Positions 13,298 to 35,900 of a stretch of 64,000 nucleotides of DNA are shown one piece after another. The notes beneath the pieces are model-generated. The model made no database searches. It was not told where the DNA came from and saw nothing but the letters and a program-made list of their open reading frames with translations. Made by a program: the position numbers and the translations under genes. The stretch covers positions 62,001 through 126,000 of the forward strand of contig NZ_FUYV01000007.1 in NCBI RefSeq assembly GCF_900168165.1, in the 5' to 3' direction. Origin of the DNA: Alkalitalea saponilacus. Its GTDB lineage: Bacteria; Bacteroidota; Bacteroidia; Bacteroidales; Marinilabiliaceae. How positions within the stretch are numbered: the stretch's first letter is position 1; every line of letters begins with the position of its first letter.

Positions 13298-13500
13298 GTA
13301 AGTGGATAATCGATTTATTTAGTCGAATAATAAAATAATTACTATTTTTATTTCAAGACATTTCCTGTTTTAAGAAAACAAAATTGCAGACGAATGAAAA
13401 ACAGACGAAAAGTAACACGACAATAAAAGCATGAATAGCTGCTGCTTATGCAAGTTACTCTAATACATCTGGAGCAAATGAATTATTAAATTATTTTCGG

Positions 13501-13950
13501 ATGAAAGAAAAATTTCTGATTCATATCATTTTAACACTCATTTTAGGCACTTTTGCTATACAAGAAAGTTATAGCCAGAGTTGTCGTGGTTATGAACGCA
13601 GATGTGAGTCAGCTCCAAGATACTTCCAGTCCAGTTCTTTATCGCGGGCTGTAACTTTGCGGAAAGCAAGGAAAATTATTATCAATCAAACTTTCTTTGG
13701 TAATCGGGAATATTTTGTCTCGGTATGTGGTCACAACAGGCTGGGAAAAATACATTTCCGTCTTATTGCTGATGACGAGGATCAAACAGTTCTTTACGAT
13801 AATGCAGCCGATGATTTTAAAGAATCACAGCTATTTGTGATTCTGAATACCATGGCCGTTAAAGTTGAAATTTCTGCCCCGCACTATTTTGACGACAGAG
13901 GATCAGAATGTGCCGGTGTGCGAATCTTCTATAATCAACAAAAAGATTAG
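13501..13950 (+). CDS. Small secreted protein of unknown function
   Basis: The protein has 149 residues. The N-terminus MKEKFLIHIILTLILGTFA followed by a Ser/Gln-rich stretch (QESYSQS) is a clear signal peptide, cleaved around residue 25. The mature domain of about 120 residues has four Cys (in SCRGY, RRCES, SVCGH and ECAGV), which could form two disulfides outside the cytoplasm, and a beta-rich pattern. No known family is recognised. It lies 203 bp downstream of another exported protein on the same strand, and the downstream neighbour is convergent with a 71-bp gap. Confidence 0.75.
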   Translation: MKEKFLIHIILTLILGTFAIQESYSQSCRGYERRCESAPRYFQSSSLSRAVTLRKARKIIINQTFFGNREYFVSVCGHNRLGKIHFRLIADDEDQTVLYDNAADDFKESQLFVILNTMAVKVEISAPHYFDDRGSECAGVRIFYNQQKD

Positions 13951-24077: not shown

Positions 24078-26402
24078 CTATTCCCTCATCGTTGCAAAAA
24101 CTCTGCGGGAATCGGATGCCCCGGATTCATCAACAATTTTCAGAGTATTCCAACCGTTTCTAAAGACAACGCTCATGCGATGTTCGCCTTTGGATTCCCC
24201 AAGGTACTCATCATCCAGATACCAATAAACCGTGGAGCTTGTAGAGATGTGCCCTGCCCGACATACAACCGGTTGAATTTGCCCATCAAAATCGCGCGGC
24301 AGAAAGACTTTTGCCTCCATATCAGGATATATGATTTTTACCGCCTCATCGGCTCGATAAGCGGGACATTCGGGATTATGCCCAGCAATAGGTTCAATGA
24401 ACTGTCCTTTTGCTCTCAGATAATAAGCAACATCAGGGGGATAAATCAATACCGGTTTCCGGTTACTACCTGTTTCAGTCCAACATCTTGAACACGTCTG
24501 ATGCTTCCCATCATCAGAGAAGAATTTAAACTGATGATAATTACATGTTTTTAGAGGCTTCATTCCCCACGGTAAGTCCATCATCACATAATCGGGACAA
24601 GCATCGGTAGCTCTGAAACCGGACAGTTTACAAACTTTTTGCTGCCTGTAATCAATGTCGCTTTTTTGAAACCAGACAGACTCTCTACTGAAAGGTAACG
24701 ACTGTAAAACATCAAACAATATGGCTCCGGCTGATGTTGCTCCGCTCAAATTCTTATTTCCTTCGCCATTGAAATTGCCCACCCAAACGGCGATGGTGTA
24801 ATCAGGATTTACGCCGATTGCCCAGGCATCTTTATGTCCGTAGCTGGTTCCTGTTTTCCAGGCAAAAGGCCGTGCGCTGTTAAAATGATACCAATAATAT
24901 TCGCTGCCGGGTCTTTTCAAGTCATGCAACATATCAAGTACGAGATAACAACTGCCGGGACTCATTAACCTTACCGATTGCGTGTTTTTCTCTCCCTGAA
25001 TTACATAATTATCTGAAAAAACACCTTCATTGGCCAGACCCCGATACAGTTTGGTCATTTCCCACATGGTAACTTCCGACCCTCCCAAAATCAGTGGCAA
25101 CCCATATTCATCTGCCGTCCGAAAAAGAGTTCTCATTCCGGCACTTTCCAGAAAACTATAAAACTGATACAATCCATAGGCATTCAGCAGCCGTACTGCC
25201 GGAATGTTGAGCGATTGCACCAAAGCATCGCGCGCAGTTGCCACTCCACTATACTCCCGGCTGGCATTTCGCGGAGAAAAACCATCAAAATAGGTTGGCA
25301 AATCACGTATAAAACTCTCCGACGAGATAAGTCCTTCATCTATGCTTAAACCGTACAAAAACGGTTTAAGTATTGACCCACTTGATCTCCATGCCATAAC
25401 ACCATCCACCTGTCCTCCATGGTCAAAATCAAAGAAATCGGGTGAACCCACATATGATTTTACAGCGCCGCTTTTTGTATCAGTAACAAGAATTGCCAGA
25501 TTATGAATTCCATACGATGAATACCTATGCCGGTATATAGATGCCAGATGATTGCATTTTTTCTGTAACTCTTCGCTTATTGTAGTCGGTAAAATGTGTC
25601 GTTGCGGATGATTTCGTCGGAGACGGAAAGCCAAATGAGGAGCGTGAGACTGAAAACGGTGAAACCGTTGAGGCACCGGCTCAAGTAATGCCAACTGAAG
25701 AGTCAGCTCATTGATGTGACCTTTTTCATGTAATTTCTGAAGCAACTGGTTGCGCCTGTTTAATAAAGCACTGGATCTTTCCGAGGGATAAATTAACCCG
25801 GGTGCGTTTGGCAATACAGCCAATGTTGCAGCTTCTGCCCAAGTGAGTTCATAAGCCGGTTTATCAAAAAACATCAGAGAGGCTGTTCGGTAACCAATTA
25901 CATTACCCCCGTATGGTGCATGATCGAGATAAATTCTTAATAAATCTTCGCGTGAATAATGCAGGGTTAATTTTATAGCAAAAAAAGCCTCTCTAATTTT
26001 ATTAAAATAGGTACGTGGCCGCTGATGGCGCATGCGCGCAATCTGCATGGGTATGGTGCTGGCTCCGCTGGTCACCCTTCCATGCCTGAAATTATCACGG
26101 GCTGCTCGAAAAACAGCTTTGAAATCAACTCCTATGTGAGAATAAAAAGACTCATCCTCAAAAGTAATAACAGCCGTTTTCAATTTATCCTCCACCGTGC
26201 AAGTATCCGGGGGAAAATGCCATTGTTCGTTTTTATTGAGAAATGCATGTAAAAGATACCCGTTTTCGGAAAGCACGACAGTACTGTAATCGTCATTGAA
26301 AATTGGCGACGATGGTGGAATCAAAAACCAGAAGAAGACAATGACCGGCAATATGATTGCCGGCCATTGCCAGTATTTAATCCTGTTTAAAAGCTTCAAC
26401 AT
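24078..26402 (-). CDS. pbpC: Penicillin-binding protein 1C, bifunctional peptidoglycan synthase
   Basis: The protein has about 774 residues. After a cytoplasmic/membrane N-terminus (MLKLLNRIKYWQW then a helix about 13-30) comes a GT51 transglycosylase domain with the catalytic Glu in FEDESFYSHIGVDF and GASTIPMQIAR. The transpeptidase domain has the active Ser in SGSILKPFLYG (SxxK), SLN in VQSLNIPAVRL, and KTGTS. The C-terminal ~90 residues match the BiPBP_C domain (beta sandwich ending at the stop). PBP1C polymerises and may crosslink peptidoglycan. The start at 26402 is chosen because it gives a normal N-terminus; earlier starts at 26438 (ATG) and 26456 (TTG) would extend the overlap with the alpha-2-macroglobulin gene. 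With 26402 the two genes overlap by 26 bp, which suggests translational coupling. This gene pair is conserved in many Gram-negative bacteria (in E. coli yfhM-pbpC). Confidence 0.94.
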   Translation of the reverse strand: MLKLLNRIKYWQWPAIILPVIVFFWFLIPPSSPIFNDDYSTVVLSENGYLLHAFLNKNEQWHFPPDTCTVEDKLKTAVITFEDESFYSHIGVDFKAVFRAARDNFRHGRVTSGASTIPMQIARMRHQRPRTYFNKIREAFFAIKLTLHYSREDLLRIYLDHAPYGGNVIGYRTASLMFFDKPAYELTWAEAATLAVLPNAPGLIYPSERSSALLNRRNQLLQKLHEKGHINELTLQLALLEPVPQRFHRFQSHAPHLAFRLRRNHPQRHILPTTISEELQKKCNHLASIYRHRYSSYGIHNLAILVTDTKSGAVKSYVGSPDFFDFDHGGQVDGVMAWRSSGSILKPFLYGLSIDEGLISSESFIRDLPTYFDGFSPRNASREYSGVATARDALVQSLNIPAVRLLNAYGLYQFYSFLESAGMRTLFRTADEYGLPLILGGSEVTMWEMTKLYRGLANEGVFSDNYVIQGEKNTQSVRLMSPGSCYLVLDMLHDLKRPGSEYYWYHFNSARPFAWKTGTSYGHKDAWAIGVNPDYTIAVWVGNFNGEGNKNLSGATSAGAILFDVLQSLPFSRESVWFQKSDIDYRQQKVCKLSGFRATDACPDYVMMDLPWGMKPLKTCNYHQFKFFSDDGKHQTCSRCWTETGSNRKPVLIYPPDVAYYLRAKGQFIEPIAGHNPECPAYRADEAVKIIYPDMEAKVFLPRDFDGQIQPVVCRAGHISTSSTVYWYLDDEYLGESKGEHRMSVVFRNGWNTLKIVDESGASDSRRVFATMRE

Positions 26403-29400
26403 AAACCTTCCTGCCCCTTGTGGTAGCTTTAAAATCATTATTGTACATGGCTTCAACCAGAGTTCCCGGCAACCAATAGCTGCCTGCGGTGACGCAATTC
26501 AACTTTACTACAAAATCCAACGACTCCCTGTCTCTTAAATCAAAGAACCACATAATTCTGTCATCCCTGATATCCTGATAATTCTCTTTATTAAGATTCC
26601 AGCTTTGTGTCCATTCGGGCAATACGGTATTATTCAGTCTGATATTTTCAATCTGCCACCCCGAAGGCATCATCTGCATCAATGCTATTTCGGAAACACG
26701 GCTTAACGGACTGCTGTTGTTTACTGTAAACCTGCCGTAGAATGTATCGCCCTGCTTTAGTGAGCCGGGTTCAAGAAGACGGCCGTTTTCATCGTACCAA
26801 TTCACTTCCAGTTTCAGGTTTTTGGTAACAGGTTCACTTTCATCCTTCAATGGCACACCGTTCCACGATAAACTGGCAAACACCTGGTTCACATCAGAAC
26901 TATTGGCAAGATGGATTTCAATGTCCCGGTTGAAGCCATCCCTGATGGGGATAACAATTCTGCCCTTTTTATTGAATTCAACCTTTTTGCCATCGGCAAA
27001 ATGAACATGTCCTGTTATTATCTGGTCTCCTCCCACGTCCAATCCAATGGAGTCAAAATATCGACCCAAAGCCAACAGCATATACCCTGAACTTTGGGTA
27101 CTTAGAAAGTCAGTTCCTGATAACACTCCGGCCACAGATTCAGCAATGGTTTCTGCCATTGCCTCCATCCCCATTAATGTAGCACAATACAGAATGATCG
27201 CGTCATCGCGGTGACTACTGCCAAAATTGTAGTAAAATGGTTCATACAATTCGGTAGTTGTCCCCGCGTTGGCAAGAATCCTATCCCTGATGTTCTCTGC
27301 ACCCACCAAATGATAGGCGGTTGCCAACATCCAACGGCTGGCATTGTTAAGTTTCTCCAGTTCATTTTCCATGAGCATATTCATTTCGGCCATGGGTTGC
27401 CGTCCTGCCAATGCCAAAATAAATGCTCTGTATGCACGGGTGGCCAAGCGTCCCTGATGCCTTCTTGCCTGAGTTTCCATGCCGTTAATGGCGTTATTAT
27501 ATAGAAAATCGGGGACTGAATAACCTAAGTTCCTTGCTTCAATTAAGAAATGAGATGCATAATTACTGCTCCATTCGCATGTAGTCGTGTTTCCGGGCCA
27601 ATAGGAAAATGCTCCATTTTGCAGCATAAATTGTTGCAAACGATTGATGCCGGCATTCAGGTTTTCATCAATACTTTTTTGTTCTTCAGCATTAAAATAA
27701 CCCATCTTTTTAAGATACAACTGAGGGAAAAGAGCCGATGTGGTTTGTTCCAAACAACCATACGGATACCTGATAAGCCAACGAAGTCTGTGGTCAAAGT
27801 CCATGTTTGGGAAAATATTGATATCCAGAGAGGCATTGTTTGTGCCGGCAACTCCAACCTCAGGCACTCTCATTCTGATGGTTGACCCTTTTTCAACACG
27901 TTCGGTTTTTTTGTCGTAAACCCTTACCGATGAAGGTACTACGCGAATATTGGTTTCATTCTCAACACGAATATCCCCTGAAACTCCTTCGAGCACAATT
28001 TTTGCCTGACCAATTTCCTCTTTTGCTCTGACTTTAAACTTAATCAATGCCTCATTGCTGTTTCTGAAATCCACATTAACCGACCGATTACCCACTACTT
28101 CCAAAGGCCCCTCGGTTCGGATGGAAAAACGAGCTTCCTGAACCGAGTTAACCATATTAAACAGCGATACTGGCACTTCAAATTCATCAAGGGGTTTCAG
28201 AACCCGAGGCATATTTGATTGCATAATAATATCAGAACGAACAGGGATGGTTTTATCAGCATGACCAAAACTGCCTTTTTCAGTGCCAACCACCATCACC
28301 CTTACTGCTCCATTATAGTTTGGCATGTGAAACTTTACGGTTGCACGTCCTCTGCTATCGGTCTTTATTGGCCCCTTGAACATGCTCACCGGTTCAAAAC
28401 GTCGCTTTCCGTCAACCGGATCCAATTGTGATTCACGATAATCCAGATCATCGGCACCTCCTATGGAAAAAGTCTGAAGGACATCATCCCGATTAACACT
28501 CATCACATGGGAAAAGATATCGAATGTCTCCACAAAAAGGCCAATCTTTTTGTAAAACTCACGCCAGGGATTTGGGGTTCTGAACTGCGTGAGACTTAGT
28601 AATCCTTCATCCACCACAGCTATGGTAAACTGCGCCGGCTGTCGATTTCTGGTACTTATTACCACTTCAAAATCTTCATTGGGTGAAAGCACCTCCTTTG
28701 TAGAAATATCAAATTCAATTTTGGTTTCAGCATCCTCAATACGCAACGGGATGATTCCGAACATTCTGATTGGACGATCGTTAACCGTTTGACTATGAGG
28801 CTGAATAACCGACACCGTTGCGTAAATATTTGGCAGATAATCCTTTTTCAGAGGAATATCTATCACCAGTTCATCACCGGAAGTTCTGGAAGGATCAACC
28901 CAAAACCAATCTAACATTCTGCGGCCGCGTTCTAAAGTAACCAAAACATTTCCCTGTTTCGGATTTGGCAACATAATCCGTGCAGTTTCACCGGATGAAT
29001 ATACCTGTTTGTCCGATTTTAAAGAGAGTGTTCCCTCGTTCATATCACCGCCCGGAACTCCTCCATATCTGTAAGCACTAAAAAAGAGAGAAGAGATATG
29101 CCCATTCCCACCATCCATCACTTCTATGAGATACTCCCCATTTTCAGAAGGGGTAAAACTGACATGATTCAACCCCTCTCCCAATGTTAATGATCCTTCT
29201 GAAACAATATATGTTTGAGTATCCTCCTTATATTTAAGCTGATAGCTTCGGCGATCTCGGTATTGATACCACCATCGGCGGTCGTTTCGGTACACTCTGT
29301 AATTCAACTGTCTGCCGTTAAGCCTATTTCCATCCGGGTCAAGTAGAACTACAGGAAATCGAACCTCCGAACCGGTCTGATGATAACCATACCCGCTCGG

Positions 29401-31854
29401 ATCCTGAATTCCTACATATCCAGGGTAAACATGCAAATCGGAAACATTCCATCCTTCGTTTGGCTGGCCTCCCTGCTCCAGAACGGTTGCCGATATTTTC
29501 AATTTTAAACCGGATGGAACATCGCCCAAAGAAGGAAGAATCCATTCTCCTTTAAGTTTTCCGTCATTGTCCAATCTACCTTTAAGTACATTATGCGTAA
29601 AAGAGCGAAAATCTACGTCAGCTCTGGAAAAATTGTAGTTAAGATACCTTGGGAACTTCATTTCATGAGGATGAACCTCAATGTTCACATCAGTTTGTAA
29701 ATTTGGTGCCGGTGCACCAAATAAATACTGCACGTCCACATCGAAACCTATAACCCGGTCGTTCCAATTAAAAGTACGTTTAGCAGGTCTCACCTGAACC
29801 CGTAGCTGCTCTGCAACAACTGTTTCAATTTTTAAATGATCGTAAAAATATGCTCCACCAGCATTAATCTGAACATTGTAGGTACCGGTGGGAGCACTCT
29901 CTTCGGTTTGCATTGAAAAAACATACATCCCATCGGTTGACCGTACCTGTGTTTGTTCATGCACAATTCTGTATTGCGGATTACGCACAGTTATACTAAC
30001 CGGATGGTTTGCAGGGAAAGTATTATCCCTGTTCTTAGCAATGAAACCGATGTTGATAGAATCTCCGGGACGATAAACACCCCTTTCGGTGTATATAAAA
30101 CCACGCACTCCGTGGTGGTTTTCCGAAATACCCCCCACATCAAATCCGGAATTACTCCAACGCATTTCATTTCTGCTTATGGCAGAAATTTGTTTGTCAC
30201 TTTTTGCCGTTATGTAATAAAAATAGCCGGATGAACCAAACCGTACCATGCCCAGATTATTAGTCCGGCCGTTTTGCATAATACTCCCGCCATAATTAAG
30301 CAATTCAACATTAATACCAGATATTGGCTTGCCGGTAAGAATATCCGTTACAAAAACCACCACACCGCCATCCAATGCCTTCGCTGTAATACCGAGATCG
30401 CTTAAAAAAACCGGTTTGTATATCTGCCCCTTTTCTTCAATATAGCTAAGAACTTCTCCTTCTATGGGTTGACTAACGTCACCTGGGTTAAAATTAATTC
30501 TTATGAGAAAGAGACCATCGTCATACTTCGAAAAAAGTTCAGAAAGGTCAAACTCGTTCAAAATCCATTCATTTGGTTTTTCGGCCAGTTCTATGGTTTG
30601 GTTTTTAACAATAACCCCAACTGAGCCGGAATAATGATCTCCAAACCCCCTGTTGCGGGTTCGTTCACTTCTCAGTTGAGAAGAATTCAAAAAGGCTCCG
30701 ATCTGGCTGGTATATACCTTCTTCACCTCAAGGTGAACCCTCTTAAGGTTTGTGGTATAGAACTGTACTCTCTTTTGATTGGATTGAGGCAAAATGACTC
30801 CATCGGAAGCAAACTCTAACTGTGGTGGAATATCAGAGAATCTTAATTCTCTGGTTACTTTAGAATCAGTGACTGTTCCCCATCGGCTTCTGATACCCGG
30901 CTGAACCGTCACTTTATAACTGCTCCCGAACTTAAACCCACCATCAATGGAAAGCATGTTCCCCATTTTTCGAACCTGAAAATCAACATCCGGCTCAATG
31001 GAAATCAAACCATCAATATTTTGGTCAATATCAAGTTCATCTGAGAAACTGATGCGCACAGCAGCGCTTCTGCCTGATTCATCAACTCTGAATTCTCCGG
31101 CAACCATTTTTTTCAATGGAGAAACTTCAAAAGTTTCTGTGTAATTTTCTGATAAATCAAGATCCCTGCGGTTAATAGAAAATGTATACCTCCTGTTTCT
31201 GTCAGTTCTGATGATTTTATCAGATACAAACTGAAAATGAGTATCGCTTAACCGACTCCAGTTAAGTTTAATTTCCTTATCTCCCTTAAGACTTGCAGAT
31301 TTATTCAGGATATCCAAATCAGCAGGTTCTGAAAACAGAACCGCTCCCCGATAAACCAGCTCTTTTGGCTCGTTTCGGTCAATTAACTCCAGAGTACCAG
31401 AGAAACTTGAGAGATTACGTCCGAGTACATTCAGATAAAACTCCAGATTCTCAAGCTTTTTTTCTCTAAAATCTTCGGAGAGTTCTTGGAGATTTAATAC
31501 CCCTTTAATCACTGTTCTTGAAGGTAACCCGTTCTCAGGTTGAAACTCCAATGTATGAGCACTTGTCCATACGGCTTCACCTCTTACCCTCGGATTAAAT
31601 GTAAACACGTTGCCCGGAGTTGATCCAATCTTTTCCTCATCTACAACGGGATTGTTAAATATAACTCGGACAATGTCGCTGGATCGCACATCACCGGATG
31701 TTACAAAACTTATTTCACGAACAATTTCTTCTGAATAAATAACTTCAGGTAAAGATTCACCGGGAGCGGGTGATTGAGATCTTTTACAAGAAAAAACAAC
31801 GCAAATGAACAATATAACAGTCCACATGCATAATGGGCGAAAAGTGGAAATCAT
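26377..31854 (-). CDS. Alpha-2-macroglobulin-like lipoprotein with thioester
   Basis: The 1825-residue protein is a bacterial alpha-2-macroglobulin, a periplasmic bait-and-trap protease inhibitor thought to protect the cell when the envelope is breached. The N-terminus has a lipobox ending FSC (Cys23) after a hydrophobic stretch. Macroglobulin domains follow, including the typical RGVYRPGDSINIGF near residue 600 and the A2M stretch TDSRGRATVKFHMPNYNG near 1180. The thioester motif YPYGCLEQT is intact, with C1367 and Q1370, so a covalent trap is expected. After it come the alpha-helical TED domain and a C-terminal beta domain. It is the first gene of an operon with pbpC. The coupling to PBP1C fits a role in envelope repair and defence. 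The length is at the upper end of the family range. Confidence 0.94.
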   Translation of the reverse strand: MISTFRPLCMWTVILFICVVFSCKRSQSPAPGESLPEVIYSEEIVREISFVTSGDVRSSDIVRVIFNNPVVDEEKIGSTPGNVFTFNPRVRGEAVWTSAHTLEFQPENGLPSRTVIKGVLNLQELSEDFREKKLENLEFYLNVLGRNLSSFSGTLELIDRNEPKELVYRGAVLFSEPADLDILNKSASLKGDKEIKLNWSRLSDTHFQFVSDKIIRTDRNRRYTFSINRRDLDLSENYTETFEVSPLKKMVAGEFRVDESGRSAAVRISFSDELDIDQNIDGLISIEPDVDFQVRKMGNMLSIDGGFKFGSSYKVTVQPGIRSRWGTVTDSKVTRELRFSDIPPQLEFASDGVILPQSNQKRVQFYTTNLKRVHLEVKKVYTSQIGAFLNSSQLRSERTRNRGFGDHYSGSVGVIVKNQTIELAEKPNEWILNEFDLSELFSKYDDGLFLIRINFNPGDVSQPIEGEVLSYIEEKGQIYKPVFLSDLGITAKALDGGVVVFVTDILTGKPISGINVELLNYGGSIMQNGRTNNLGMVRFGSSGYFYYITAKSDKQISAISRNEMRWSNSGFDVGGISENHHGVRGFIYTERGVYRPGDSINIGFIAKNRDNTFPANHPVSITVRNPQYRIVHEQTQVRSTDGMYVFSMQTEESAPTGTYNVQINAGGAYFYDHLKIETVVAEQLRVQVRPAKRTFNWNDRVIGFDVDVQYLFGAPAPNLQTDVNIEVHPHEMKFPRYLNYNFSRADVDFRSFTHNVLKGRLDNDGKLKGEWILPSLGDVPSGLKLKISATVLEQGGQPNEGWNVSDLHVYPGYVGIQDPSGYGYHQTGSEVRFPVVLLDPDGNRLNGRQLNYRVYRNDRRWWYQYRDRRSYQLKYKEDTQTYIVSEGSLTLGEGLNHVSFTPSENGEYLIEVMDGGNGHISSLFFSAYRYGGVPGGDMNEGTLSLKSDKQVYSSGETARIMLPNPKQGNVLVTLERGRRMLDWFWVDPSRTSGDELVIDIPLKKDYLPNIYATVSVIQPHSQTVNDRPIRMFGIIPLRIEDAETKIEFDISTKEVLSPNEDFEVVISTRNRQPAQFTIAVVDEGLLSLTQFRTPNPWREFYKKIGLFVETFDIFSHVMSVNRDDVLQTFSIGGADDLDYRESQLDPVDGKRRFEPVSMFKGPIKTDSRGRATVKFHMPNYNGAVRVMVVGTEKGSFGHADKTIPVRSDIIMQSNMPRVLKPLDEFEVPVSLFNMVNSVQEARFSIRTEGPLEVVGNRSVNVDFRNSNEALIKFKVRAKEEIGQAKIVLEGVSGDIRVENETNIRVVPSSVRVYDKKTERVEKGSTIRMRVPEVGVAGTNNASLDINIFPNMDFDHRLRWLIRYPYGCLEQTTSALFPQLYLKKMGYFNAEEQKSIDENLNAGINRLQQFMLQNGAFSYWPGNTTTCEWSSNYASHFLIEARNLGYSVPDFLYNNAINGMETQARRHQGRLATRAYRAFILALAGRQPMAEMNMLMENELEKLNNASRWMLATAYHLVGAENIRDRILANAGTTTELYEPFYYNFGSSHRDDAIILYCATLMGMEAMAETIAESVAGVLSGTDFLSTQSSGYMLLALGRYFDSIGLDVGGDQIITGHVHFADGKKVEFNKKGRIVIPIRDGFNRDIEIHLANSSDVNQVFASLSWNGVPLKDESEPVTKNLKLEVNWYDENGRLLEPGSLKQGDTFYGRFTVNNSSPLSRVSEIALMQMMPSGWQIENIRLNNTVLPEWTQSWNLNKENYQDIRDDRIMWFFDLRDRESLDFVVKLNCVTAGSYWLPGTLVEAMYNNDFKATTRGRKVYVEAFKQD

Positions 31855-31908
31855 TATTTGGGTATAAATTAAATTAAGGAATTTGATTATTTACGAAAAT
31901 GCAAATAA

Positions 31909-31916
31909 CAAATTTA
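31909..31916 (-). promoter_or_regulatory. Possible Bacteroidetes -7 element for the alpha-2-macroglobulin gene
   Basis: On the minus strand the bases read TAAATTTG, matching the TAnnTTTG -7 consensus of Bacteroidetes, about 55 bp before the start codon. No clear TTTG -33 box is present 19-21 bases upstream, so the call rests on one element only. Confidence 0.35.
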
Positions 31917-32022
31917 ACTTTTATTATCTAATTCCATCATTGGTCGTTGAAATTTCCTATAAAATAAACTTCTATTTAGGCATTCTATTGAATTACAACA
32001 AAACGAACCTCTTTAATTTTCA

Positions 32023-32216
32023 TTTCATCCGAAAATAATTTAGTTAATTAATTGGCCGAATGGAACTTCCATGAGGTGTTATTTTCATTTTCTTGTTGTG
32101 AGTTTCCCACTCATGGGCGTTTCATTTGAAAATAATTTGTTTAAGTCATTGGCCAAATGGAACTTCCATGAGCTGTTATTTTCATATTCTTGTTGTGAGT
32201 TCCTTACTCATGGGCG
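32023..32216. repeat. Tandem duplication of a 97-bp unit upstream of susC
   Basis: Unit 1 is 32023-32119 and unit 2 is 32120-32216; they align without gaps with about 12 mismatches (near 88% identity), and a few bases of a third unit (TTTCATCC) follow. Each unit contains the dyad TGGAACTTCCA (32061-32071 and 32158-32168) and a 7-base inverted pair CCATGAG / CTCATGG (32069-32075 with 32110-32116, and the same spacing in unit 2). No coding frame is preserved through both. It may be a duplicated regulatory site or a remnant of a small noncoding repeat element. Confidence 0.8.
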
Positions 32217-32819
32217 TTTCATCCCTTAACAATTAAAATCTATCACAAGCAAACGAAATTTTTCGTAAGTCATTAAATATAAAATCATAAAACCATTTTA
32301 CATACTAATAGGATTGCATAATCTTGATTTTTACAGATAATATTTGTCACTTCTAACTAAAACCTCCACAATTTTTTTTATGTTAAATTTATCGATAATA
32401 CAGTTCCTACATAAAGGTAGGCTTTTAGCTATATAAAAAACCGCATATACATTAACATTATCGAGCAAATAATACAAACACGACAATGAACTTCTAAAAC
32501 AAACTCAAATTCCTCTTATTATTGCTTACAATCTATTATTCAACTTCTTTCATAACTTAATTTAACTATTGACTATTTGAGTCGAATTAAATTTAAATCT
32601 ATTATCAAATTTAACAAATTTTAAAACAGACATAATTTGTAATAACATGTCATGTTATCTATTTCTTTTTCTGAATTAAACAACCAATGTATCAATATTT
32701 ATATACACAAATCTAAACTATTTCTTTTATCAGGACATAACTTCATTTAAACTAAGCAATTTTTTAATTACGGAATAAAAATGTGTATCAAAATGTTTAA
32801 ATAAATGATCAAAATGTGC

Positions 32820-32966: not shown

Positions 32967-35900
32967 ATGAAAAAAAAGGAAAAACTGAAACTTTGGAGAT
33001 TTTTGGAAATCTTCCGGGAACCGGTTTCACTGGTTCTTCGATCAACATTTCTAAAAGCAGTGGTGGTTTGTGCTCTTATGCTCCTACCCATGGCAATATT
33101 TGCACAATCGAACACCATTACGATTAACGGAAGGGTGGTAGATCAGTTTGATGAGCCAATCCCTGGAGTAACAGTGGTGCTAAAGGAGAGTGCAACAGGA
33201 ACAATAACTGACGCACTTGGTAACTATACCATACAAGCACCCGAGAATGGAGTATTGGTGTTTTCGTTTATTGGATTTAGAACCAAGGAAGTTACCATTG
33301 AAGGAAGAATGACAATAAATGTGATGATGGAAGATGATGTATTGGGATTGGATGAAGTTGTTGTGGTTGGATATGGTACAGTGAGAGCAAGCGATGTCAC
33401 AGGTTCTGTTTCAAGGGTATCTTCTGCTCAGATTGAAGCTATGCCTGTTCAAAACCCATTGCAAGCATTACAAGGAAGAGCTGCTGGAGTAGACATTACT
33501 TCTAGCGCAAGACCAGGAGAAATTGGATCTATCCGAATTCGTGGAAACCGCTCTATTACAGCAAGCAACGAACCTCTTTTTGTAGTTGATGGAATTCCTT
33601 TGGCAGCTGGCGGTATAGAAGCCATAAATCCAAATGACATTAACTCAATTGAAATCCTTAAAGATGCCTCAGCAACCGCAATATACGGTTCAAGGGGAGC
33701 CAATGGCGTTGTGCTAATTAGCACAAAACGAGCTCAGACAGGTGTAGCACAAGTGAATTATCATGGAACCTTGTCTTTTGAAAGAATCAATGATTTAGCT
33801 GATAATTTCAACTCTCAAGAGTATGCCGAATTTCGTAGGGAAGCTTACAGAACATTTGGACAATACTCAACTCCATTCCCTAATCCAAGTGAAGACTACG
33901 CCATTTTCGGAGCTGATCCACACGCATGGAACAATATAGCGGAAGGATACACTTGGATTGACCGAGCGAACAGAGTGCCACAAATGCGAGCAGCAACAAC
34001 TGAAGAACAATTAAGGTGGGGTGTTAGTGAAGTTCCGGTATATGATGGCAGCCGCATTCCAACTACAGATTGGACAGATTATGTTGAAAGAACAGGAATT
34101 ACACAAGACCACAACATAAGCATCAGCATGGGTACTGACAGAATGAAGACATATATGTCAGCAGGCATCTTAGATCAACAGGGAACCAATGTTGGACAGG
34201 ATTACACCAGATATACCGGGATGTTAAGTCTTGAATTCAGCCCAAATGATTGGTTGACTGTTGGTGGGAATATTACCGGAAGTTATGCAATTCAAAATTA
34301 TGGATACACAACTGGAGGTTCAAGGAGTGCCCGCACAATATATGATGCTGCAAAAGGGATGTTACCATTTGCCGTACCATACGATGATAACGGAAATTTC
34401 CTTTACAATCCAGGTGGGGATGCAAATATTGTAAACCCAATCCGTGAAGGAGACATGGTGACAAACGAGCGCACAACAATACGAACCCTGGGTAGCTTTT
34501 TTGCAGAAATTCAATTATTTGAAGGTTTAAAATATCGTGCCAACTTTGGTCCTGACTTTAGAAATTACCGTTCGGGTGAATACAATGATGCACTATCCAT
34601 TACCAGAGGTACCGGATCAGGCACTGATCGTGCAAGATATCAAAAGAACCAATGGATTGCCTGGACTTTCGACAATCTCTTATACTACAATACAAACATT
34701 GACAATGTACATGATATTGGGGTAACATTACTTCAAAGTTCATCCATGTCAAGAAATGAAGGGATCGACAACACCGTAACTGATTTACCATATAGTTCGC
34801 AGCTATGGTACAATTTAGGATCTACAAACCGTGGTGAAGTTGACGGTTGGGGATCATGGTACTCTAAATCAACTCTCATGTCATACATGGCAAGAATAAA
34901 CTATGCTTTCCTAGACAGATATTTGGTAACTGTATCAGGAAGATGGGATGGAGCTTCTGTTCTTGCAGATGGAAACAAATGGGACTTCTTTCCTTCATTC
35001 GCTCTTGCATGGAAACTACATCAAGAAGATTTTATGATGGGAGTAGACTTATTTAATGAGCTTAAACCAAGAATTGGTATGGGAACCACAGGTGCTGCAG
35101 CCATATCGCCATACTCAACGCAGGGAGGACTGGTTAGAATTCCATATGTATTTGGTACAACTCCGGCAAGTGGATATGTAACTTCGAACCCGAAAGGACC
35201 AGCCGCAGAACAAGGATCGCTGCCTAACAGAGATCTGGGTTGGGAAAAAACAACACAGTGGAATTTTGGTGTTGATTTTGGTATTCTCAGAAACCGAATT
35301 TCAGGTTCTATCGACTATTATGTGGCCAACACCTCTGATTTATTGCTCAACAGAGGGTTACCATCTGTATCTGGATATAACCAAATTATATTCAACGTTG
35401 GAAAAACAAAAAACAGCGGTGTTGAACTTGTACTAAACTCTATCAACGTAAATACCGGAAACTTTCGATGGGATACCAATCTTTCTTTCTCTAGAAATAA
35501 TGAAGAAATTGTTGAACTATATCAAGGAAAAGAAGATGATATTAGCCGACAACTTTTCATAGGACAACCCATCAACGTGTTCTATGATTATGAGAAAGTC
35601 GGAATCTGGCAATTAGAAGATGCAGCAGAAATGCAGAGATTTAATGACAATGGACATAATTATCGTGCCGGAGACATTCGTGTAAGAGACCTTAACGGAG
35701 ACTATTCAATAGATCCAAACAACGACAGGAAAATTGTTGGTACTGCCGCTCCAAAATGGACCGGAGGGATAACCAATACCTTCAAATACGATAATTGGGA
35801 AATGTCAGTATTTGTATATTCAAGATGGGGGCATACTGTAGCAACTGTTGCTCCGGATATGCAAGGTCGTTACCAATCAAGAAAAATTGATTACTGGACG

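What the first reader, a model, noticed from the sequence alone, without database searches (positions are those of the whole stretch)
32023..32216. 97-bp tandem duplication with internal dyads upstream of susC
Two adjacent 97-bp units, about 88% identical and gap-free, each hold the dyad TGGAACTTCCA and a longer CCATGAG/CTCATGG pair. The duplication lies 750 bp before the susC start in a long noncoding region. Divergence of about 12% means it is old, yet the spacing and the dyads are conserved, which hints at function or at a small mobile repeat family.
Basis: seen in the sequence. Interest (0 to 1): 0.55.

Follow-up and report, generated by a model that had tools for sequence, protein, structure and literature searches.

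The report
Short mobile repeat, inserted twice
The supposed 97-base duplication is two separate insertions of a short, gene-less mobile DNA repeat that jumps into the sequence TTTCAT and is scattered through this bacterium and its relatives, apparently in hundreds of copies in some; what enzyme moves it is not known.

Summary
In detail: two gap-free 97-bp units, 88% identical, at 32023-32216. 'Old local duplication' does not. The own genome gives 22 matches, this one included. Unit 1 is 103/103 identical to copies on two other contigs but 91/103 to its tandem partner. So two members of a dispersed family inserted in turn at TTTCAT. The element is about 97 bp, gene-less, without terminal inverted repeats or target duplication. 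It inserts 3' of TCAT and ends in TTTCAT, rebuilding its target, hence the arrays. An internal 9-nt guide complements the left junction, with covariation, and the right end. A model finds the family in 46 of 100 genomes; one has 669 right-end motifs. Start-codon placement is explained by the motif (13/43 against 41/161, p=0.56). The logic resembles IS200/IS605 and REP elements, but no Y1 transposase with these ends was found. No role for susC is indicated.

The parts
32023..32028 (+). target hexamer TTTCAT (left flank of unit 1)
   Evidence: The empty site in L141 has a single TTTCGT here; 69 of 73 model matches have TCAT as the last four bases of the left hexamer.
32029..32125 (+). element copy 1 (97 bp, CCG subfamily), including its own 3' TTTCAT at 32120-32125
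   Evidence: Covariance model match 32023-32125, 109.9 bits; 103/103 identical to copies on contigs C48 and C57.
32126..32222 (+). element copy 2 (97 bp, TTG subfamily), including its own 3' TTTCAT at 32217-32222
   Evidence: G000:C59:94120-94222, 108.1 bits; one search listed only unit 1 of the overlapping pair; nearest relative is unit 2 of L002 (97/103), not unit 1 (91/103).
32057..32065 (+). guide segment CGAATGGAA of copy 1, complementary to its left junction TTTCATCCG (one C.A mismatch) and, through ATGGAA, to its right end TTTCAT
   Evidence: Covariation across 68 distinct copies.
32154..32162 (+). guide segment CAAATGGAA of copy 2, complementary to its left junction TTTCATTTG
32060..32073 (+). 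5' arm of the right-end stem in copy 1 (ATGGAACTTCCATG), pairing with 32112-32125
   Evidence: 93.8% of cells paired over 23 copies, slid controls at most 49.3%.
32112..32125 (+). 3' arm of the right-end stem in copy 1 (CATGGGCGTTTCAT)
   Evidence: motif CATGNNCGTTTCAT occurs 23 times in the own genome, 0 in the reversed-motif control.
13474..13514 (-). remnant: left end of another copy, abutting the ATG (13501) of a 149-codon ORF on the + strand
   Evidence: G000:C59:75474-75514, E=1.2e-5; ORF.

Best explanation
Shown: 32023-32222 holds two head-to-tail copies of a non-autonomous, gene-less repeat of about 97 bp, from two subfamilies, inserted one after the other at one TTTCAT site in the intergenic region before susC. 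The element inserts immediately 3' of TCAT (mostly TTCAT), carries TTTCAT as its own 3' end (so the target is rebuilt and arrays can grow), and makes no target duplication. Inferred: it moves as a folded strand. The internal guide CNNATGGAA pairs with the left junction (target TTTCAT plus the first three element bases NNG), and its ATGGAA pairs with the 3' end TTTCAT, so one guide defines both cleavage points and the target, as the guides of IS200/IS605 elements and REPs do. An enzyme acting in trans cuts after TTTCAT at both places, a circle forms with a TTTCAT|NNG junction, and it re-inserts at another TTCAT. Insertions survive mostly outside genes, often exactly before an ATGAAA start codon because that is the target's complement. 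No role for susC is proposed.
For: Empty sites: window locus in N. pectinivorans; L004, L007, L010, L013 and, at 71% identity, L009 in G001, aligned through the junction, each with one hexamer ending in TCAT. Separate insertions: unit 1 is 103/103 to L002 unit 1 and L013 but 91/103 to its neighbour; L003 unit 1 and L004 unit 2 are 103/103 with different neighbours. No target duplication: L011 differs from four identical copies by 1 of 103 bases, the first base of the left hexamer (ATTCAT), while its right end is TTTCAT; 9 of 73 matches have TTTCAT on the right and another hexamer on the left. Guide-left pairing: 50 cells changed on both sides against a shuffled mean of 15 (0/500), best slid control 10. 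Guide-right pairing: 93.8% of cells, slid controls at most 49.3%. Placement: 3 of 46 insertions in ORFs against 467 of 628 background TTTCAT sites.
Against: Mobility is solid; the single-strand, guide-based mechanism is inference. None of the 34 Y1-transposase matches scanned with the model (1.5 kb on each side) is framed by copies. Y1 presence does not track the element: 39 of 46 carriers against 39 of 54 non-carriers, p=0.15, and G007, G016 and G042 (95% complete or more) carry 15, 19 and 11 copies with no Y1 match. A longer class in G018 (165-293 bp, same ends, one 202-bp subtype in seven copies) lacks the guide, so not every form needs it. For the guide-right stem the count of cells changed on both sides (8, shuffled mean 2.4) is equalled by one slid control, and the number of covarying pairs (2) is reached by 49 of 500 shuffles and exceeded by slid controls. 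For the guide-left helix two of five measures do no better than the shuffles. Single units are not unusually stable folds. G.T against A.C counts do not settle which strand folds, and the recent unit-1 subfamily has a C.A mismatch in the guide-left helix. 5 of 73 matches keep TTTCAT on the left with a changed right hexamer, and 7 have neither.
Confidence: 0.72

Rival explanations
1. The element is a cassette for a site-specific tyrosine recombinase: TTTCAT is the crossover overlap, circles carry one joined site, and arrays grow as cassette arrays do.
For: Conservative-looking insertion at a hexamer, head-to-tail arrays and variable inner content with constant ends fit as well as the strand model.
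Against: The dinucleotide next to the hexamer varies among copies of one genome in step with the guide, which points to base pairing and not to one protein's recognition. No gene-sized pair of ends was seen in the 395 kb of G018 read: of two candidates flagged, the 5,491-bp one ends in a long-class copy with a diverged left end of its own and the 362-bp one is a long-class copy. Recombinase families themselves were not searched.
Confidence: 0.22
2. An RNA-guided or RNA-copied element: the guide works in an RNA (as in intron IBS/EBS pairing, an IS110 bridge RNA, or reverse transcription primed at ATGAAA).
For: The guide spans target plus first element bases, as an internal guide pairing across a junction would.
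Against: Too short for a group I or II intron (recalled) and no Rfam match in 701 bases around it at E<=1. The IS110 domain PF02371 has no match in 5 of 6 genomes tested, the own genome among them (no other IS110 model was tried). Reverse transcriptases were not searched.
Confidence: 0.12
3. A neutral local tandem duplication in the susC upstream region.
For: Adjacent units, same orientation, 88% identity.
Against: Each unit's nearest relative is at another locus; other copies genome-wide; the empty site lacks both.
Confidence: 0.01
4. A cis-regulatory element or start-codon leader selected for its effect on susC or on downstream genes.
For: 38 of 73 model matches have the left hexamer as the ATG of an ORF of at least 60 codons, the genes being diverse; one copy (L040) is kept in both species at the same start codon.
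Against: In G018 13 of 43 noncoding insertions against 41 of 161 noncoding TTTCAT sites are at start codons, p=0.56. The window copy is not at a start codon (left ORF of 2 codons), and N. pectinivorans keeps this susC region without it.
Confidence: 0.05

Closest known systems
IS200/IS605 family ends and their gene-less derivatives
   Same: No terminal inverted repeats, no target duplication, insertion 3' of a fixed short target, last bases of the right end equivalent to the target, guide 5' of a hairpin complementary to both (logic of hairpins and guides as described in PMC6006769, passages seen).
   Different: One guide serves both ends; nine-base pairing instead of four; no Y1 transposase with these ends found; a longer class lacks the guide.
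REP / REPIN elements moved by RAYT (TnpA_REP)
   Same: Short, noncoding, mostly intergenic, many copies, hairpin with a guide at its foot, clusters.
   Different: About 97 bp, fixed TTTCAT ends, no GTAG or CGTC tag in either window unit; the Y1/RAYT genes looked at here are flanked by other palindromes.
Classical MITEs (RUP, NEMIS and the like)
   Same: Small gene-less dispersed repeats, presumably moved in trans.
   Different: No terminal inverted repeats and no target duplication.
Integron cassette arrays (attC)
   Same: Folded recombination-site-like stem, head-to-tail arrays, variable contents in the longer class.
   Different: No attC core motif by inspection (motif recalled, not from a call); integrases were not searched.

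Membership tests
IS200/IS605-derived element | Inserts 3' of a fixed short target, without target duplication | tested here: met
   Empty sites; pristine copy L011 with unlike hexamers.
IS200/IS605-derived element | Guide at hairpin foot pairs with target flank and with last bases of right end | tested here: inconclusive
   Strong for the left junction, weaker for the right end; absent in the longer class; no biochemical test.
IS200/IS605-derived element | A subterminal hairpin at each end with its own guide | tested here: not met
   One shared guide and one enclosing stem in the short class.
IS200/IS605-derived element | Autonomous relative encoding a Y1 transposase with the same ends | tested here: not met
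   0 of 34 Y1 matches in G000 and six relatives framed by copies; no gene-sized pair of ends in 395 kb of G018. Other genomes were not examined this way.
REP/REPIN | GTAG or CGTC tag at palindrome foot | tested here: not met
   Tags absent from both units by inspection; tags as in PMC3733652 (title, start of abstract and passages).
REP/REPIN | Cognate RAYT gene flanked by copies | tested here: not met
   limited to seven genomes.
MITE (DDE type) | Terminal inverted repeats | tested here: not met
   Ends TTTCAT|NNG... and ...CGTTTCAT show none by inspection.
MITE (DDE type) | Target-site duplication | tested here: not met
   L011 hexamers differ; 9 of 73 matches have TTTCAT on the right and another hexamer on the left.
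IS110-derived element | IS110 recombinase in the host | tested here: not met
   PF02371 in 1 of 6 genomes, none in the own genome.
Known Rfam RNA family | Match to an Rfam model | tested here: not met
   0 matches at E<=1 over window 31800-32500.
Integron cassette | Integrase acting on attC sites | not tested
   No integrase search was made.

The most novel reading that the evidence does not exclude
A new class of guided mobile element of Marinilabiliaceae-like Bacteroidales: one internal nine-base guide reads the circle junction, the 3' end and the chromosomal target alike, is free to drift because element and guide covary, and is served by an enzyme that is neither a Y1 transposase nor an IS110 recombinase. 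It builds self-extending arrays and reaches hundreds of copies per genome.
Probability: 0.2. Interest if true: 0.8.

Novelty: new variant of a known kind. Interest (0 to 1): 0.55.

Why it matters
It turns a curious local repeat into an abundant mobile repeat family that the papers searched here do not describe, with a clear target rule, empty sites, recent copies and a pairing code that can be tested by compensatory mutation. It also warns that upstream regions of many genes in these bacteria may be transposed DNA, and that apparent tandem duplications there may be stacked insertions.

Tried and rejected
Local duplication: rejected. Start-codon targeting beyond the TTTCAT motif: rejected for G018 (46 insertion sites from 395 kb; ORFs called by length, so starts are approximate; three of the 46 sites look like loose-pattern matches by eye and were not removed). 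Y1 transposases as carriers of the same ends: 34 matches (some overlapping) scanned with the model; three have a copy within 1.5 kb at E<=1e-3 (L113, L124, L135), none is framed by copies, and with hundreds of copies per genome such neighbours are expected (L124 was not looked at further). IS110: PF02371 not in the own genome. Plasmids and phages: no match for one copy each. The single IMG/VR pattern hit (L145) lies in phage-like coding sequence without a right end and is taken as chance. Strand of folding from G.T against A.C: inconclusive. Mini-ORFs on the gene-sense strand suggested translational coupling; dropped by eye because many copies lack the overlapping stop (not counted). Rfam: nothing. 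Literature: the searches gave no listing that describes this family; papers opened were PMC3733652 and PMC6006769, passages only; the library lacks most subscription journals.

Rows left out: one search used 73 of the 138 loci held then (repeat fetches of the same place, some identical copies, most Y1 loci and fragments omitted); its 73 matches still hold two places twice (L063/L090, L075/L093). One search used 68 distinct rows of 73. One search asked about 13 of the own genome's copies; besides the five empty sites and L040, L002 and L005 showed other repeats in G001, L011, L014 and L030 matched in separate or one-sided pieces, L006 matched on one side at several places, and L015 gave no usable match.

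Full report
What is there. The two units at 32023-32119 and 32120-32216 are real, gap-free and 88% identical. A third TTTCAT follows at 32217-32222, so the layout is TTTCAT-[91]-TTTCAT-[91]-TTTCAT. The region lies between an alpha-2-macroglobulin-like gene on the minus strand (26377-31854) and susC (ATG at 32967) (gene names recalled from sequence, no family search was run on them).

It is a dispersed family. Searching the own genome (4.56 Mb, 96 contigs) with 32000-32240 gives 22 matches at E<=1e-3, the window's own included. The right-end motif CATGNNCGTTTCAT occurs 23 times against 0 in the reversed-motif control. Copies stand alone or head to tail, and in arrays each shares one TTTCAT with its neighbour.

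The pair is two insertions. Unit 1 equals unit 1 of L002 and L013 (the latter apart from an inner insert) at 103/103, and L006 at 102/103, but its own partner at only 91/103; unit 2 is closest to unit 2 of L002 (97/103). L003 unit 1 and L004 unit 2 are identical with different neighbours. Four other copies (L005, L007, L009, L010) are identical to each other over 103 bases. Recent copies thus sit beside older ones.

Empty sites. The nearest named relative found is Natronoflexus pectinivorans DSM 24179 (L141, 94% identity in the macroglobulin-like protein). Its intergenic region aligns on both sides and has TTTCGT followed directly by CCCTTAAC where the window has both units, and the model finds no copy in that locus. 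Five align through the junction with a single hexamer ending in TCAT: L004 (91%), L007 (91%), L010 (85%), L013 (76%) and L009 (71%) (some of the earlier alignments were poor). L040 is present in both genomes at the same start codon; L002 and L005 have other, related repeats there in G001. The rest gave one-sided, split or no usable matches.

Target and ends. Of 73 model matches from the own genome and relatives, 69 have a left hexamer ending in TCAT and 67 in TTCAT; 61 end in TTTCAT on the right. L011 differs from the four identical copies only in the first base of the left hexamer, ATTCAT, while its right end is TTTCAT. In all, 9 of 73 have TTTCAT on the right and another hexamer on the left, 5 the reverse, 7 neither. 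That fits a target taken from the chromosome on the left and an element-borne hexamer on the right, not a duplicated target. Because the right end is itself a target, arrays form.

Pairing code. The left junction TTTCATNNG complements an inner segment CNNATGGAA. The two variable positions take many complementary combinations, for example TC/GA, CC/GG, CA/TG, TT/AA, AT/AT and GT/AC. Over 68 distinct copies 92.3% of cells pair, 50 cells are changed on both sides against a shuffled mean of 15 (0 of 500), and slid versions reach at most 10; relatedness of copies inflates such counts, and two of the five measures were no better than the shuffles. The alignment was fitted to the right-end stem only, so this helix was not imposed. 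The same segment's ATGGAAC pairs with the right end GTTTCAT: 93.8% of cells over 23 copies, slid controls at most 49.3%; but the 8 cells changed on both sides (shuffled mean 2.4) are equalled by one slid control, so covariation there is weaker. The recent CCG subfamily has a C.A mismatch in the left helix (13 rows).

Spread. The covariance model finds the family in 46 of 100 genomes, own genome included, in 24 of 61 genera, scoring at most 40 candidates per genome; blastn with one copy finds 16 of 100. The right-end motif with up to one mismatch occurs 669 times in G028 and 335 times in G018 (control 0 and 1); the guide motif 224 and 105 times. In 395 kb of G018 I found a second class of 165-293 bp with the same ends, other inner sequence and no guide; one 202-bp subtype recurs in seven copies. 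So the guide is typical of the short class, not essential to every mobile form.

Start codons. In 38 of 73 matches the left hexamer is the complement of an ATG opening an ORF of at least 60 codons (two places are counted twice among the 73), in front of genes as unlike as a LacI-type regulator and an NqrB-like subunit (names recalled). In G018, 13 of 43 noncoding insertions are at starts against 41 of 161 noncoding TTTCAT sites (p=0.56), and 3 of 46 insertions are in ORFs against 467 of 628 background sites. The motif alone plus loss of gene-breaking insertions explains this.

Who moves it. Five Y1-transposase matches in the own genome and 29 in six relatives are not framed by the element; those looked at have palindromes of their own. 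Y1 matches occur in 39 of 46 carriers and 39 of 54 non-carriers (p=0.15), and three carriers at least 95% complete have none. The IS110 domain PF02371 is missing from the own genome. The IS200/IS605 logic (hairpins, guide 5' of the hairpin foot, target flanking the left end, last bases of the right end; PMC6006769, passages) is the best match to the anatomy, but membership fails on the enzyme and on the single shared guide. I therefore say that it probably works like such an element and do not file it there.

Verdict. A mobile, gene-less repeat family, not described in the papers that the listed searches returned, with the window holding two stacked insertions; no evidence for a role in susC control.

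Noticed in passing
L003 unit 2, L008, L013, L016, L017 (own genome): Several copies carry inner inserts of about 20 bp (GGCTAAGGCCGA-like; in L016 also a CCCGATGTATCGGG palindrome), as if a second, smaller repeat inserts into the element.
   Followed up: no
L023-L027, L115, L130, L136: Y1/RAYT transposase genes sit among their own short palindrome families (GCCCCGTAGGGGC-like and others), distinct from the element studied here.
   Followed up: partly
L012 (G000:C42:115535-115639): One copy appears to interrupt a HepT-like gene of a bacterial toxin-antitoxin pair; its right end has diverged. Gene name recalled from the sequence.
   Followed up: no
G018 loci L176-L195: A longer class (165-293 bp) keeps the element's ends but encloses stop-rich repeats (AGTCATTAGTGGTTAGTC...) and a CTTCTGCCTTCTGCCTGTGCACTTCTGCCT block.
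   Followed up: partly
L052 and G001 locus L150: Shorter relatives with TTTCAT ends around a CCCGA..TCGGG hairpin in place of the guide region.
   Followed up: no
window 24078-31854: A penicillin-binding-protein-1C-like ORF and an alpha-2-macroglobulin-like ORF overlap by 80 bp on the minus strand as listed (names recalled from sequence; the first ORF's TTG start may be too far upstream).
   Followed up: no
window 31881-31899 and 32260-32278: A 19-nt inverted pair (84%) flanks the element pair at 360 nt distance; it lies outside the insertion and looks incidental.
   Followed up: no
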